Shown here in pieces: positions 1-32,493 of a stretch of 37,067 bases of DNA (positions within the stretch are counted from its first letter, which is position 1; each line of letters begins with the position of its first letter). A program made the position numbers and the translations under genes. The DNA lies in the NCBI GenBank assembly GCA_017829005.1, contig JAGAJF010000076.1, forward strand, positions 1 to 37,067, written 5' to 3'. Source of the DNA: Oscillospiraceae bacterium (GTDB lineage: Bacteria; Bacillota; Clostridia; Oscillospirales; Ruminococcaceae). The notes beneath the pieces are model-generated. The model did no database searches and had not been told where the DNA came from. It was given only the letters and a program-made list of their open reading frames with translations.

Positions 1-2
1 TC

Positions 3-71
3 GCCCTGATAACCGACAATCTCAGGCTCAAATACAAAAAGAATGAAAAGACTCAGATCGCTGTAAAGTGA
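3..71 (+). CDS. 3' end of an unidentified gene (partial)
   Basis: An open frame enters from the left edge and stops at TGA 69-71, giving 22 residues (ALITDNLRLKYKKNEKTQIA, then VK). The tail is basic and hydrophilic, and too short to assign. A rho-independent terminator starts 14 bp after the stop, which is the main reason to think this is a real gene end. It lies on the same strand as the toxin-antitoxin locus, but a terminator and a new consensus promoter separate them. Confidence 0.4.
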   Translation, partial: ALITDNLRLKYKKNEKTQIAVK

Positions 72-84
72 TACTGTCAAAAAG

Positions 85-115
85 ATCCTCTGCAATTTCC
101 GCAGGGGATTTTTTG
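85..115 (+). terminator. Rho-independent terminator of the upstream gene
   Basis: Positions 85-93 (ATCCTCTGC) pair with 101-109 (GCAGGGGAT) with one G-U pair and a 7-nt loop, followed by a T run at 109-114. It insulates the toxin-antitoxin locus from upstream transcription. Confidence 0.75.
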
Positions 116-118
116 TGC

Positions 119-147
119 TTGACAATCTCTGCTGTCTATGGTATAAT
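119..147 (+). promoter_or_regulatory. Consensus sigma-A promoter of the type III antitoxin RNA
   Basis: TTGACA (119-124), a 17-bp spacer and TATAAT (142-147) match the consensus exactly, with an extended -10 TG at 139-140. Transcription would start near 154 and run through the antitoxin repeats. Such a strong promoter suits an antitoxin RNA that must be in excess over its toxin. Confidence 0.9.
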
Positions 148-200
148 ATATACAGACAGGTAAAAGCCTGTCATATATGAGAGCTTTGCTCTTGTAAAAA

Positions 201-305
201 GCAGGAGGACCCTGCCGCTAAGTGGGAGTATTAAAGCAGGAGGACCCTGCCGTTAAGTGGGAGTATTAAAGCAGGAGGTCCCTGCCGTTTAAGTGGGATT
301 TATAA
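201..305 (+). repeat. Three tandem 35-nt antitoxin repeats
   Basis: Units 201-235 and 236-270 differ at one base (CCGCTAAG versus CCGTTAAG). The third unit, from 271, differs in the loop (AGGTC), has one extra T (CCGTTTAAG) and drifts near its end where it meets the terminator. A degenerate last unit is usual for arrays of about 2.8-3 repeats such as AntiQ of AbiQ, which also has 35-nt units (from memory). There are no variable spacers, so this is not CRISPR. Confidence 0.9.
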
Positions 306-335
306 AAAGCTGTGTTTTTCGGCACAGCTTTTTTT
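304..335 (+). terminator. Terminator between antitoxin RNA and toxin gene
   Basis: AAAAAGCTGTG (304-314) pairs with CACAGCTTTTT (323-333) around an 8-nt loop, and the T run reaches 335. In type III loci this terminator lets most transcripts end after the repeats, so antitoxin RNA outnumbers toxin mRNA; occasional readthrough makes the toxin. Confidence 0.9.
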
Positions 336-358
336 ATGAAAAGAATGGGTGTAAAAAA

Positions 359-895
359 TTGGGAAAACTGAATTTTTATTATGTTGATATGAAATATATA
401 CGTGATCTTGCCAATGCGGACAGCAATGTGCTGTCCGTTTCGCCGCAGGATAACAAGCAGACACGTCCGTTTGTGGGAGTTATTCTTGTTTGCGGCAGCA
501 GAACATATTGCGTTCCCTTATCATCTCCGAAAAAGAAGCACGAAACGATGAAAAACAGAGAGGACTTCTCAAGAATCGTTGACAATAACGGAAGGATAAT
601 AGGTGTGCTTAATTTTAATAATATGATACCCGTATGTCAAGAAGTCATTACGCCTATAGATATTCGTCCGAACCGCTCCGACCCCCCTGCTCAGGTCGGA
701 CGGAAAAAAATTATGAACATTCAGCTTGACTGGTGCAATAAAAATAAAGAGCTTATATGTAAAAAGGCGAATAAGCTTTATCATCTTGTGACCGAAACAC
801 CCGAAAAAATGCGAAGTCTCACACGAAGATGCTGTGATTTCAAAAAGCTTGAAACTATCCTTGATAAAAGACTTGAGAACATCACTGTAAAATGA
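359..895 (+). CDS. toxN: ToxN/AbiQ-family endoribonuclease toxin (type III TA)
   Basis: Sequence-selective endoribonuclease that would cut cellular mRNA and its own antitoxin precursor, normally held inactive by ToxI RNA. The 178-aa product matches my recollection of ToxN (171 aa): an N-terminal FYYVDMKYIRDL segment, then PFVGVILVCGSRTYCVPLSS leading into PKKKH. The S55-S56-P57-K58 motif corresponds to the active-site T/S-S-P-K of ToxN. Later NFNNMIPV (about 107-114) and a basic helical C-terminus also fit. The open frame reaches up to a GTG at 293, but that would translate the terminator. I chose TTG 359, where the product aligns with the ToxN start; GGGTG at 347-351 is a modest ribosome site. 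ATG 389 would remove conserved residues. Codon use looks more AT-rich than in uvrB. Confidence 0.85.
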   Translation: MGKLNFYYVDMKYIRDLANADSNVLSVSPQDNKQTRPFVGVILVCGSRTYCVPLSSPKKKHETMKNREDFSRIVDNNGRIIGVLNFNNMIPVCQEVITPIDIRPNRSDPPAQVGRKKIMNIQLDWCNKNKELICKKANKLYHLVTETPEKMRSLTRRCCDFKKLETILDKRLENITVK

Positions 896-909
896 TACTA
901 TAAACATCT

Positions 910-948
910 CCTCCTATGGTATAATAAAATATCATAGGAGGAATTTTT
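910..948 (+). terminator. Inverted repeat after toxN, possible terminator
   Basis: CCTCCTATG (910-918) pairs perfectly with CATAGGAGG (933-941) around a 14-nt AT-rich loop, followed by AATTTTT. It may end the toxin mRNA. The loop holds TATAAT with an upstream TG (917-925), and the right arm contains AGGAGG 8 bp before an ATG at 949, so another role cannot be excluded. Confidence 0.5.
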
Positions 949-1922: not shown

Positions 1923-3887
1923 ATGGATAAATTTGAACTTGTTTCCCCCTATAAGCCCTCGGGAGACCAGCCCCAGGCGATAGACAAGCTTGTGGAGGGC
2001 ATCGAAAAGGGATATCGTGACCAGACCCTGCTTGGCGTAACAGGCTCGGGAAAGACCTTCACAATGGCGAATGTCATTGCCCGAATGAACCGCCCCACCA
2101 TTGTACTTGCTCATAACAAAATTCTTGCGGCGCAGCTCTGCTCCGAGTTCAGGGAGTTTTTTCCACATAATGCCGTGGAATATTTCGTTTCCTACTATGA
2201 TTATTACCAGCCCGAGGCGTATATCCCCTCCACCGATTCCTATATCGAAAAGGACAGTTCCATAAACGACGAGATAGACAAGCTCCGCCACAGCGCCACA
2301 CTTGCCCTTGCCGAGCGCAGGGACGTTATAATCGTGGCGTCGGTCTCCTGCATATATTCTCTGGGCGCACCCGAGGAATACCGCAGCAATGTCATTTCTC
2401 TTCGCAAGGGAATGGAGATGTCCCGAGAGGAGCTTCTGAGAAGGCTTGTGGAAATACAGTATGAGCGCAATGACATAAATTTTATCCGAAACAAATTCCG
2501 CGTAAGAGGAGACGTGGTGGAAATATTCCCCGCAGGTTCCACCGAGAATGCTATTCGTGTGGAATTTTTCGGAGACGAGATAGACCGCATTTCCGAAATT
2601 CACGTGCTAACGGGAAATGTTATCGCGACCCTCGCCCACACAGCCATTTACCCCGCCTCTCACTATGTAGTCTCGAGAGACCATATCCACGAAGCGGTCC
2701 TTGAGATAGAAAGGGAGCTTGGAGAGCGTGTTGAATGGTTTGAAAAGCAGGGCAAGCTTGTTGAAGCACAGAGACTTAAACAGCGTACCCTTTACGATAT
2801 CGAAATGCTTGAGGAAATAGGCTTCTGCAAGGGAATTGAGAACTACTCCCGCATACTGTCGGGCAGAGAGCCGGGCAGCACCCCCTACACTCTCCTTGAC
2901 CACTTCCCCAAGGACTACCTTCTTTTCGTGGACGAGAGCCACGTCTCTCTCCCACAGGTAAGAGGAATGAGCGCGGGAGACAGAGGCAGAAAGACCGTAC
3001 TTATCGACTATGGCTTCCGTCTCCCCTCGGCATACGATAACCGTCCTCTTAACTTTGACGAGTTTGACTCAAAGATAAATCAGGCGATATATGTATCCGC
3101 CACTCCCGGACCTATCGAAAGGGAGAAGTCCGCTCAGATAGTTGAGCAGGTAATTCGTCCCACAGGTCTTGTGGACCCCGAAATAACCGTAAAGCCCGTA
3201 GAGGGACAGATAGAAGACCTTCTCAGTCAGATAAATATCCGTGCGGAGAAGAATGAGAGAGTCCTTGTCACCACCCTTACAAAGAAAATGGCTGAGGATC
3301 TCACAACGTTCCTCACAAATGCAGGAGTAAGAGTGCGCTATCTCCACCACGATATCGACACCATCGAGCGTATGGAGATAATACGTGACCTGAGACTTGG
3401 TGAATTTGACGTGCTTGTGGGAATAAACCTGCTAAGGGAGGGACTTGATATACCCGAGGTTTCTCTTGTGGCAATTCTCGATGCGGACAAGGAAGGCTTC
3501 CTCCGCTCCGAGTCCTCCCTTATCCAGACCATAGGACGAGCTGCCCGAAACAGCGACGGCAAGGTAATAATGTACGCCGACAGCGTAACAGGCTCAATGG
3601 AGCGTGCCATAGCCGAAACAAACCGCCGCAGAGAGCTGCAGCTCAAATACAACGAGGAACACGGTATCGTGCCGAAAACCATCATCAAGGACGTTCGTGA
3701 CGTTATCGAGATATCCACCAAGGAAGAGGTAAACGGCAAAACAAGTGAAAAGAAGCTCACCAAAAAGGAGCGCGACGAGCTTATAACAAAGCTCACCGCC
3801 CAGATGAAGGAAGCCGCAAAGCTGCTTGAATTTGAGCACGCTGCTTATCTGAGAGACAAGATAAACGAGCTTAAGGAACAGAAATAA
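1923..3887 (+). CDS. uvrB: Excinuclease ABC subunit B
   Basis: UvrB is the damage-verifying helicase-like core of nucleotide excision repair: it receives DNA from UvrA and recruits UvrC for dual incision. The 654-aa protein has full family length. Visible features are the Walker A motif GVTGSGKT (38-45), the beta-hairpin region rich in tyrosines ([20 protein letters not shown], about 90-109), the DESH Walker B box, helicase motifs including the IGRAARN region, and the C-terminal UVR domain ([17 protein letters not shown]) that contacts UvrC. AAGGAG lies at good spacing before ATG 1923. It follows the LysR gene by 16 bp and precedes a cardiolipin synthase by 21 bp. Confidence 0.98.
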
Positions 3888-25096: not shown

Positions 25097-25356
25097 AATG
25101 TAAATGCTATGACGGAAAAAAAGCAGGGCATAACCGTTTTCAGAGAGCCTTCGTATGGTGGGAGAGGGCAGCGGCGCTTTGAAGATACATTCCCGAGCAG
25201 ATACGGTGAAATTTAAGTAGCCCTATCCGTACCGAGACACGTTACAGTCTTCCAAAGGTTATGCTTTCGCATAACGAACTGAGGTGGTACAGCGGCATTT
25301 GTCGCCCTCTTGAAGCTTGCTTCTTTTGAAGCATTGCTTCGGGAGGGCGTTTTTGT
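25097..25356 (+). promoter_or_regulatory. T-box riboswitch, probably tyrosine-specific
   Basis: The leader has the T-box core AGGTGGTACAGCGG (25282-25295) and an upstream stem I with AGAGAGCC (25142-25149) and GGTGGGAGAGGGC. A terminator follows: CGCCCTC (25303-25309) with GAGGGCG (25343-25349), then T5. In stem I the GAAGATACATTCCCGAG stretch offers a TAC (Tyr) specifier at 25186-25188. The antiterminator bulge TGGT would pair with an A73 discriminator, which fits tRNA-Tyr and argues against the overlapping GAT (Asp) reading, since tRNA-Asp has G73. tyrS lies 2 kb downstream behind three other genes. Specifier assignment is by eye. Confidence 0.85.
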
Positions 25357-27331: not shown

Positions 27332-28546
27332 ATGACTTTATACGAAGAACTTACCCGCAGAGGACTTATCGCTCAGGTCACCGATGAAAAGGAGATCAGC
27401 GAAATGATTAACAACGGCAAAGCCACCTTTTACATTGGCTTCGACCCCACTGCCGACAGCCTCCACGTTGGTCACTTTATGGCGCTCTGCCTTATGAAAA
27501 GACTCCAGATGGCAGGAAACAAGCCCATTGTCCTTATCGGCGGCGGCACCGCAATGATAGGCGACCCCTCGGGCAAGACCGATATGAGAAAGATGATGAC
27601 AAAGGAGACCATTCAGCATAATGTTGACTGCTTCAAAAAGCAGATGAGCCGCTTCATTGACTTCTCCGATGACAAGGCGATACTTGTTAACAATGCGGAC
27701 TGGCTTTTAAACCTCAATTATGTTGATGTCCTCAGAGAAGTGGGCGCCTGCTTCTCGGTAAACAAAATGCTCACCTTCGAGTGCTACAAGCAGAGAATGG
27801 AGAGGGGACTTACCTTCCTTGAATTCAACTATATGATAATGCAGTCCTACGATTTCTATATGCTGTTTCAGAAGTACGGCTGTAATATGCAGTTCGGCGG
27901 CGATGACCAGTGGGCAAATATGCTGGGCGGCACCGAGCTTATCAGAAAGAAGCTTGCAAAGGACGCCCACGCAATGACTATCACCCTCCTTACCAATTCC
28001 GAGGGCAAGAAGATGGGCAAGACCGAAAAGGGCGCTGTATGGCTTGACCCCGAAAAGACCTCTCCCTACGACTTCTTCCAGTACTGGAGAAATGTGGGCG
28101 ACAGCGATGTTATCAAGTGCTTAAAACTCCTCACCTTCCTGCCCATTGAGCAGATAGAGGAAATGGAGCGCACTATGACAGGCGCAGAGCTTAACAAGGC
28201 AAAGGAAATTCTTGCATATGAGCTGACCGCTCTTATCCACGGCAAGGAAGAGGCTGACAAGTGCCTTGAGGCAGCAAAGAAGCTTTTCGGCGGCTCGGGC
28301 AATACCGATGATATGCCCACCACCGAGATACCCGCAGCAGAGCTTGAGGGCGGCATCAACATTCTCGACCTGCTTGTGAAAACTGCTCTCTGCCCCTCCA
28401 AGAGCGAGGCAAGGAGACTTGTTACTCAGGGCGGTGTAAGCGTTGACGATGTTAAGGTAACAGACCCCAATGGCGTTATTGAGATAGCCGAAAGCGTTAT
28501 CATCAAGAAGGGCAAGAAGGTTTACCATAAGGTTACAAGAGCATAA
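27332..28546 (+). CDS. tyrS: Tyrosyl-tRNA synthetase
   Basis: Charges tRNA-Tyr with tyrosine. The class I enzyme has 404 aa: HIGH-type motif HVGH (45-48) within [20 protein letters not shown], the KMSKS-type motif KMGKT (227-231), and a C-terminal S4 RNA-binding domain (about 340-404, [20 protein letters not shown]). It belongs to the shorter TyrS group common in bacteria. ACGGAGG precedes ATG 27332. It is the last gene of the run that starts at the T-box; no separate promoter is obvious in the 109-bp gap. A bidirectional terminator follows. Confidence 0.97.
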
Positions 28547-32106: not shown

Positions 32107-32182
32107 GGGAGCATAGCTCAGCTGGGAGAGCATCTGCCTTACAAGCAGAGGGTCATAGGTTCGAGCCCTATTGTTCCCACCA
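32107..32182 (+). tRNA. tRNA-Val (anticodon TAC)
   Basis: The acceptor stem GGGAGCA pairs with TGTTCCC (one G-U). The anticodon loop CTTACAA gives TAC, the T arm GGTTCGAGCCC is normal, and the discriminator is A with CCA encoded. 76 nt, complete cloverleaf. Confidence 0.97.
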
Positions 32183-32185
32183 AAT

Positions 32186-32262
32186 GGCCTGGTAGTTCAG
32201 CTGGTTAGAACGCCGCCCTGTCACGGCGGAGGTCGTGGGTTCGAGTCCCATCCAGGTCGCCA
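32186..32262 (+). tRNA. tRNA-Asp (anticodon GTC)
   Basis: The acceptor GGCCTGG pairs with CCAGGTC; the anticodon loop CTGTCAC gives GTC; the discriminator is G; CCA is encoded. 77 nt, 3 bp after tRNA-Val. Confidence 0.97.
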
Positions 32263-32265
32263 TTT

Positions 32266-32341
32266 GCGGATTTAGCTCATCTGGTAGAGCGCCACCTTGC
32301 CAAGGTGGAGGTAGCGAGTTCGAGCCTCGTAATCCGCTCCA
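32266..32341 (+). tRNA. tRNA-Gly (anticodon GCC)
   Basis: The acceptor GCGGATT pairs with AATCCGC; the anticodon loop TTGCCAA gives GCC; CCA is encoded. 76 nt, 3 bp after tRNA-Asp. Confidence 0.97.
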
Positions 32342-32342
32342 T

Positions 32343-32412
32343 TTTTTCTCTGCTCTTTATTGTTATTTTTGCAGCAGCAAAAATATGCGCTTCTCTTACT
32401 TGCAGAGAAAAA
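32343..32412 (+). other. Structured spacer between tRNA-Gly and tRNA-Cys
   Basis: TTTTTCTCTGC (32343-32353) pairs perfectly with GCAGAGAAAAA (32402-32412), enclosing a second perfect hairpin ATTTTTGC / GCAAAAAT (32365-32372 with 32377-32384). In the precursor transcript this would fold into a long stem between the tRNAs, perhaps an RNase III-type processing site; that role is inferred. Confidence 0.5.
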
Positions 32413-32419
32413 TATCAAA

Positions 32420-32493
32420 GGCGCTATAGCCAAGTGGTAAGGCAAGGGACTGCAACTCCCTGACCCCCGGTCCGAATCCGGGTGGCGCCTCCA
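32420..32493 (+). tRNA. tRNA-Cys (anticodon GCA)
   Basis: The acceptor GGCGCTA pairs with TGGCGCC; the anticodon loop CTGCAAC gives GCA; CCA is encoded. 74 nt, last gene of the cluster. Confidence 0.97.

What the first reader, a model, noticed from the sequence alone, without database searches (positions are those of the whole stretch)
119..895. Complete type III (RNA-protein) toxin-antitoxin locus, ToxIN/AbiQ-like
A perfect promoter, three ~35-nt repeats, an internal terminator and a ToxN-like gene occur in exactly the order known for type III systems, several of which are phage-defence abortive-infection modules. The repeat sequence (hairpin GCAGG-AGGAC-CCTGC plus TAAGTGGGAG) is not one I recall, so this may be a new specificity variant.
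Basis: partly seen in the sequence, partly recalled or inferred. Interest (0 to 1): 0.88.

Follow-up and report, generated by a model that had tools for sequence, protein, structure and literature searches.

The report
ToxIN RNA-protein toxin-antitoxin module
This is a bacterial gene pair in which a small repeated RNA keeps an RNA-cutting toxin in check; systems of this known kind can stop phage infection, and this one also carries a two-hairpin RNA leader that many close relatives share.

Summary
The window has a perfect sigma-70-type promoter (119-147), three 35-nt repeats (198-302), a terminator (304-337) and a 178-aa gene (359-895, TTG start). The protein is ToxN: Pfam ToxN_toxin E 1.7e-45, PADLOC AbiQ 6.4e-35, best PDB match named TOXN. 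Five same-genus genomes keep the neighbouring LysR-uvrB pair with no toxN in the 1.5 kb upstream, so the module is accessory. It is a new member of the ToxIN family. The least ordinary part is a two-hairpin 5' leader (155-196) between promoter and first repeat: 26 of 32 close loci with sequence have it, and in those 26 hairpin 2 forms 156 of 156 pairs with covariation. I found no description of it in the searches and passages I saw, but PMC8040213 may already hold part of it. Its function is inferred.

The parts
119..147 (+). sigma-70-type promoter, TTGACA (119-124), 17-nt spacer, TATAAT (142-147)
   Evidence: 12 of 12 consensus matches; consensus match only, no transcript data
155..172 (+). 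leader hairpin H1, 7 bp, first paired base 8 nt after the -10
   Evidence: fold; position relative to promoter; hairpins at the same place in 25 relatives
176..196 (+). leader hairpin H2, 9 bp in the window
   Evidence: fold; 156 of 156 motif-anchored pair cells in 26 loci, arm-swap maximum 146 in 2000
198..232 (+). ToxI repeat 1 (35 nt)
233..267 (+). ToxI repeat 2 (35 nt); inferred pseudoknot stem 2 = 245-247 with 259-261, stem 1 = 237, 239, 240 with 252, 251, 250 and A238 bulged
   Evidence: stem 2 counted; stem 1 of the window is inferred, its class was not counted
268..302 (+). ToxI repeat 3 (one-base insertion)
304..337 (+). intrinsic terminator between antitoxin and toxin
   Evidence: fold z -5.8; inverted repeat I3
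359..895 (+). toxN, 178 aa, TTG start
   Evidence: PF13958 155.4 bits, cut-off 25; AbiQ; PDB ToxN and AbiQ chains
909..942 (+). terminator-like hairpin after toxN
   Evidence: 14 pairs and T-rich tail; inverted repeat I4
57..80 (+). left copy of a 24-nt imperfect direct repeat (83%) that brackets the module; role unknown
881..904 (+). right copy of the same 24-nt repeat, overlapping the toxN stop

Best explanation
It is a chromosomal type III (ToxIN family) toxin-antitoxin module, probably of a Ruminococcus-like gut bacterium (inferred from the nearest relative, not from a taxonomy call). One promoter makes an RNA with a two-hairpin leader and three ToxI repeats. Most transcripts stop at the internal terminator; the rest run on into toxN. 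ToxN, an endoribonuclease, cuts the precursor in the A-rich joints between repeats, and each 35-nt product folds into a pseudoknot that binds and silences ToxN. When transcription stops, in known systems on phage takeover, the antitoxin precursor decays and freed ToxN cuts cellular and phage RNA. Shown here: anatomy, family membership, pseudoknot covariation in relatives, leader conservation, no toxN at the orthologous LysR-uvrB site of five same-genus genomes. Inferred from known ToxIN systems: cleavage, complex formation, anti-phage role. My own inference: the 5' hairpins shield the precursor's 5' end and so help set its lifetime.
For: Protein family; active-site residues aligned and mostly conserved; promoter, repeats, terminator, gene in order; repeats in 61 of 77 relatives by TRF and 75 of 77 with reading; stem 2 paired in 240 of 240 cells and stem 1 in 195 of 196 cells of the class counted; leader in 26 of 32 close loci with sequence, H2 pairs 156 of 156; H1 begins 4-10 nt after the -10 in the 14 loci with a promoter of at least 11 of 12; orthologous site without toxN in L099-L103.
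Against: No expression, cleavage or toxicity data. NCBIfam gave no match up to E 1. The window's own stem 1 belongs to a class (31 of 80 units) that I did not count and has only three pairs with a bulge by my reading; the competing GCAGG/CCUGC hairpin is the minimum-energy fold. Six close loci lack the two-hairpin pattern, and by eye two plasmid loci have no room for it, so the leader is not needed for every ToxIN. No known phage of this host was tested or found.
Confidence: 0.88

Rival explanations
1. A silent or decayed toxIN: the parts are recognisable but no longer make a working pair.
For: The toxin start is a TTG with a weak-looking ribosome site (sequence reading); four of five single-repeat relatives have short or broken toxin frames, so decay occurs in this family.
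Against: Full-length frame, promoter 12 of 12, three repeats, terminator, mostly conserved active-site residues.
Confidence: 0.08
2. A working ToxIN whose main role is not phage defence but stabilising the DNA around it (addiction).
For: PMC5086642 (abstract) says some type III systems stabilise plasmids; the module is absent at the same site in five same-genus genomes; 154 plasmid records carry relatives.
Against: Neighbours checked are ordinary chromosomal genes such as uvrB and carB; no mobile-element gene was identified beside it, though the left flank is cut off by the contig end.
Confidence: 0.3
3. The leader hairpins are not a functional element but a by-product: a former promoter-side palindrome or degenerate repeat copy.
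For: In L027-L030 and L033 the leader is shorter and the first repeat is atypical, so leader and array edge may interchange.
Against: In 26 loci H2 keeps all six counted pairs while every pair changes type in some locus.
Confidence: 0.3

Closest known systems
ToxIN of Bacillus thuringiensis and Pectobacterium (PDB 4ato, 2xd0; organism names recalled)
   Same: ToxN fold family by sequence (4ato 7.1e-16, 2xd0 5.1e-11); repeats, terminator, toxin in the same order (PMC5086642 section read)
   Different: Repeat sequence; a two-hairpin leader before the repeats. Whether those two loci have a leader was not examined
AbiQ of Lactococcus (PDB 4glk)
   Same: PADLOC AbiQ 6.4e-35; PDB AbiQ 3.8e-6; AAGTG motif and pseudoknot-type repeats in the related plasmid locus L116 (reading)
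   Different: L116 shows no room for leader hairpins between -10 and first repeat (reading)
Candidate structured RNAs HMP2_3156, HMP2_5421, HMP2_14852 (PMC8040213)
   Same: Clostridiales and Leptotrichia RNAs directly upstream of ToxN, proposed as ToxI (passages)
   Different: Their structures are in figures and tables I could not see; whether one includes this leader is unknown
CptIN (Eubacterium rectale)
   Same: Type III layout in gut Clostridia (passages)
   Different: No CptN chain among the five PDB matches up to E 1; toxin falls in ToxN_toxin

Membership tests
ToxIN (type III TA) | toxin homologous to ToxN/AbiQ | tested here: met
ToxIN (type III TA) | tandem nucleotide repeats upstream of the toxin | tested here: met
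   relatives: 61 of 77 by TRF
ToxIN (type III TA) | Rho-independent terminator between repeats and toxin | tested here: met
   fold z -5.8; prediction only
ToxIN (type III TA) | single promoter ahead of the repeats | tested here: met
   12 of 12 consensus; no transcript mapped
ToxIN (type III TA) | repeat folds as a pseudoknot | tested here: met
   by covariation in relatives; for the window's own stem 1 only inferred
ToxIN (type III TA) | ToxN cuts the precursor and is inhibited by the product | not testable with these tools
   needs biochemistry
ToxIN (type III TA) | phage resistance | not testable with these tools
   needs an infection assay; a function of several members, not a defining feature of all
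CptIN | CptN-type toxin sequence | tested here: not met
   no CptN chain among the five PDB matches up to E 1; strong ToxN_toxin match
TenpIN | TenpN-type toxin sequence | not tested
   no TenpN reference was compared; only the ToxN/AbiQ matches speak against it

The most novel reading that the evidence does not exclude
The two-hairpin leader is a so far undescribed functional part of type III systems in gut Clostridia: a 5'-terminal RNA cap that controls how long the antitoxin precursor lasts, and so how fast the toxin is released when transcription stops, with H2 placing the first cut next to repeat 1.
Probability: 0.33. Interest if true: 0.5.

Novelty: new member of a known kind. Interest (0 to 1): 0.32.

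Why it matters
It adds a clear chromosomal ToxIN locus with many relatives in gut Clostridia and gives the antitoxin fold of this branch covariation support. If the conserved leader works as proposed, antitoxin decay, which is taken to trigger ToxIN defence, has a cis-acting setting that a simple deletion can test.

Tried and rejected
Simple hairpin as the working fold of the repeat: not kept as main model (z -0.14 and -0.34; covariation in relatives fits the pseudoknot). One compensatory change between window and L003 (C-G to U-A) would fit the hairpin, but L003 repeat 1 breaks it (reading).

Upstream tail (3-68) as the end of a second toxN: the 22-aa tail found only chance-level matches outside the window's own copies (best E 2.7) and lacks the CCDFKKLE end of ToxN. 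Assembly repeat at the contig end: window 1-130 has one full match in the held genome and one 17-base match, so not supported.

A first pair count on alignment A1 used a bracket string that I had misplaced by one column (41% paired; the +1 slide gave 84%). I replaced it with counts anchored on sequence motifs, with an arm-swap control. The motifs were tuned by eye, and the swap control ignores relatedness, so it is not a probability. H1 has no separate control; only the window's two hairpins together were shuffled.

Rfam: no match in 1-1000 at the gathering score; the weak hits lie below the gathering scores and were ignored.

Distance from promoter to H1: in 12 of 26 loci my -10 rule (T at position 6) found only scores of 6-8 and distances of 7-21; these are left out of the 4-10 nt statement.

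Not done: structure prediction, a toxin tree, a covariance model.

Mended since then: one search read 15, not 16, of the TRF-negative loci; the same-genus toxN identities; the identity range of the second branch; uvrB is now named from a search instead of recall; leader odds lowered slightly (0.35 to 0.33) because of the unseen figures of PMC8040213.

Full report
What is there. On the + strand, in order: a 12-of-12 promoter at 119-147, two hairpins at 155-172 and 176-196, three 35-nt repeats at 198-302, a terminator hairpin at 304-337, an open frame that by homology starts at TTG 359 and ends at 895 (178 aa), and a terminator-like hairpin at 909-942. The array has the highest score of the 18 TRF rows in the 37-kb window.

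What the protein is. It matches Pfam ToxN_toxin at 155.4 bits (cut-off 25), PADLOC AbiQ at 6.4e-35, and four PDB chains named TOXN (two), ToxN/AbiQ family toxin and AbiQ; a fifth match is weak and unrelated (E 0.44). NCBIfam gave nothing up to E 1. PMC8860590 names Lys33, Thr52, Ser53 and Lys55 at the active site of E. coli ToxN (passage). By the alignments these fall on Arg36, Ser55, Ser56 and Lys58. In an alignment of 65 proteins (the window and those relatives whose frame near the match was at least 150 aa, out of 81 entries), position 36 is R in 57 and K in 7, position 55 is S in 30 and T in 25, position 56 is S in 60, position 58 is K in 47 and T in 17; the tail CDFKKLE is identical in 63 to 65 of 65 at each position.

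Are the repeats general? The genome collection gave 84 relatives, of which 80 were kept. For 77 there was enough upstream DNA, and 61 of 77 have a TRF array. Of the other 16, 15 were read by eye: two have runs of N inside an array, three have two copies, four have three diverged copies, five have one copy (L031, L069, L071, L079, L082), and L066 is a toxin remnant with no repeat. L078 has too little upstream DNA and was not read. So 75 of 77 keep at least one repeat. Four of the five single-copy loci (not L069) have short or broken toxin frames. Viral contigs gave six relatives, phage records two, plasmid records 154, of which the 40 listed are annotated as ToxN/AbiQ.

How the repeat folds. 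A regular expression gave 107 hits (it does not catch every copy); 96 come from the near group. Of these, 80 could be anchored by sequence motifs without using pairing, and 16 were dropped: 7 that are not repeats and 9 divergent repeats of L027-L030 and L033. Stem 2 is paired in 240 of 240 cells, 239 Watson-Crick, against a swap mean of 202 and maximum of 217 Watson-Crick; the outer pair is U-A 49, C-G 30, U-G 1. The anchoring motif itself asks for three pyrimidines on one side and GG plus a purine on the other, so the informative part is the exchange at the outer pair. Stem 1 was counted in 49 of 80 units: 195 of 196 cells (swap mean 182, maximum 188), with A-U 32 and G-C 17 exchanging. The other 31 units, among them the three of the window, were set aside: some have the same stem behind an AAGAG start, others a bulge. 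For the window I infer stem 1 as C, bulged A, GG with CCG, and stem 2 as CCC with GGG.

The leader. In the near group (window, L003-L033, L054, L055; 34 entries) a sequence-motif search, tuned by eye on earlier printouts, found the leader in 26. L008 and L015 lack the DNA; L017, L027, L028, L029, L030 and L033 do not show the pattern; by reading, L017, L027 and L033 have one hairpin there. With the arms of H2 placed by motifs, its six pairs form in 26 of 26 loci (156 of 156 cells; arm-swap mean 136, maximum 146 in 2000), and each pair has at least two types. H1 folds in each of the 26, with differing stems, but without a control of its own. In the 14 loci whose promoter scores at least 11 of 12, H1 begins 4 to 10 nt after the -10, at or near the predicted 5' end. 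Loci L035, L036, L038, L039, L040 and L044 (toxins 33-37% identical) also have hairpins between promoter and repeats (folds without control). Of seven plasmid loci read by eye, a Lactococcus (L116) and a Shewanella (L118) locus have no room for such hairpins, a Carnobacterium locus (L120) has one, in an E. coli locus (L117) I could not place the promoter with confidence, and the other three I did not classify. That a 5'-terminal hairpin protects RNA is recalled general knowledge.

Literature. Of PMC5086642 I read sections 2, 4.3, 5 and 7 and ran a term search: it gives the layout, pseudoknot and cleavage sites, and has no occurrence of 'leader', 'hairpin' or 'stem-loop'. Term searches in PMC8860590, PMC5772629, PMC10853763 and PMC4627078 gave no 'leader' (passages only; 'hairpin' occurs twice in the first and once in the second, for terminators and a protein motif). 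PMC5772629 gives a ToxI half-life of 3.2 to 4 min (passages); PMC10853763 gives the model in which transcription shut-off frees ToxN (passage). PMC8040213 lists three structured RNAs upstream of ToxN as possible ToxI (passages), so part of this RNA may have been seen before. The statement that I found no description of the leader rests on paper searches and these passages, nothing more.

Surroundings. Downstream are a LysR-type regulator (1040-1906) and uvrB (1923-3887). Of 20 same-genus genomes (the window's own included), 13 have a LysR match at 1e-20 or better. In five of the others' loci (L099-L103) the LysR stands next to uvrB, and no toxN match appears within the 1.5 kb held upstream. 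Nucleotide similarity to four of them starts at 954-960, just before the LysR promoter region; in L103 at 1020. So the module was inserted here, or lost elsewhere. Relatives of toxN occur in 6 of the 20 genomes (own included), at 30-34% identity outside the window's own gene, plus one short match of 40%. Imperfect 24-nt direct repeats at 57-80 and 881-904 bracket the module and match nowhere else in the held genome with up to 3 mismatches. The contig begins at base 1 of the window, so the left boundary cannot be read.

Verdict. A complete-looking toxIN locus, a new member of a known kind. The conserved two-hairpin leader is the part worth a bench test.

Noticed in passing
L002:1450-2170 (own genome, contig 112): A second, distant ToxN (31% identical, 178 aa; PF13958 1.8e-33, AbiQ 6e-29) with its own array of 2.9 copies of 42 nt upstream, quite unlike the window's repeat.
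   Followed up: partly
L035, L036, L037, L038, L039, L040, L044, L067, L073, upstream of toxN: In this more distant branch the copies of one array have different stem 2 sequences, each with a matching partner (for example L035: UCCGA/UCGGA, UCUG/CAGA, UCCCU/AGGGA), seen in 9 of 9 loci examined and often in the same order; it may keep neighbouring repeats from mispairing. Longest-stem search without a control; one call (L036 repeat 2) was ambiguous.
   Followed up: partly
L066, about 2900-3100: A 32-residue C-terminal toxN remnant lies directly after a promoter-like stretch and an H1-like hairpin, with no repeat left: it looks like an internal deletion of a toxIN locus.
   Followed up: no
L031, L071, L079, L082: Short or broken toxin frames go with arrays of a single repeat, as if arrays shrink once the toxin is lost.
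   Followed up: no
window 57-80 and 881-904: Imperfect 24-nt direct repeats bracket the module and are unique to it in the held genome; possibly an insertion or duplication scar.
   Followed up: partly
window 25100-25312: T-box leader (Rfam, 105 bits) ahead of a 186-aa frame without a Pfam match at 1e-5 and a methyltransferase-like frame; a tyrosine/tryptophan-type tRNA synthetase follows at 27332-28546.
   Followed up: no
window 32107-32490: Cluster of four tRNA genes by Rfam.
   Followed up: no
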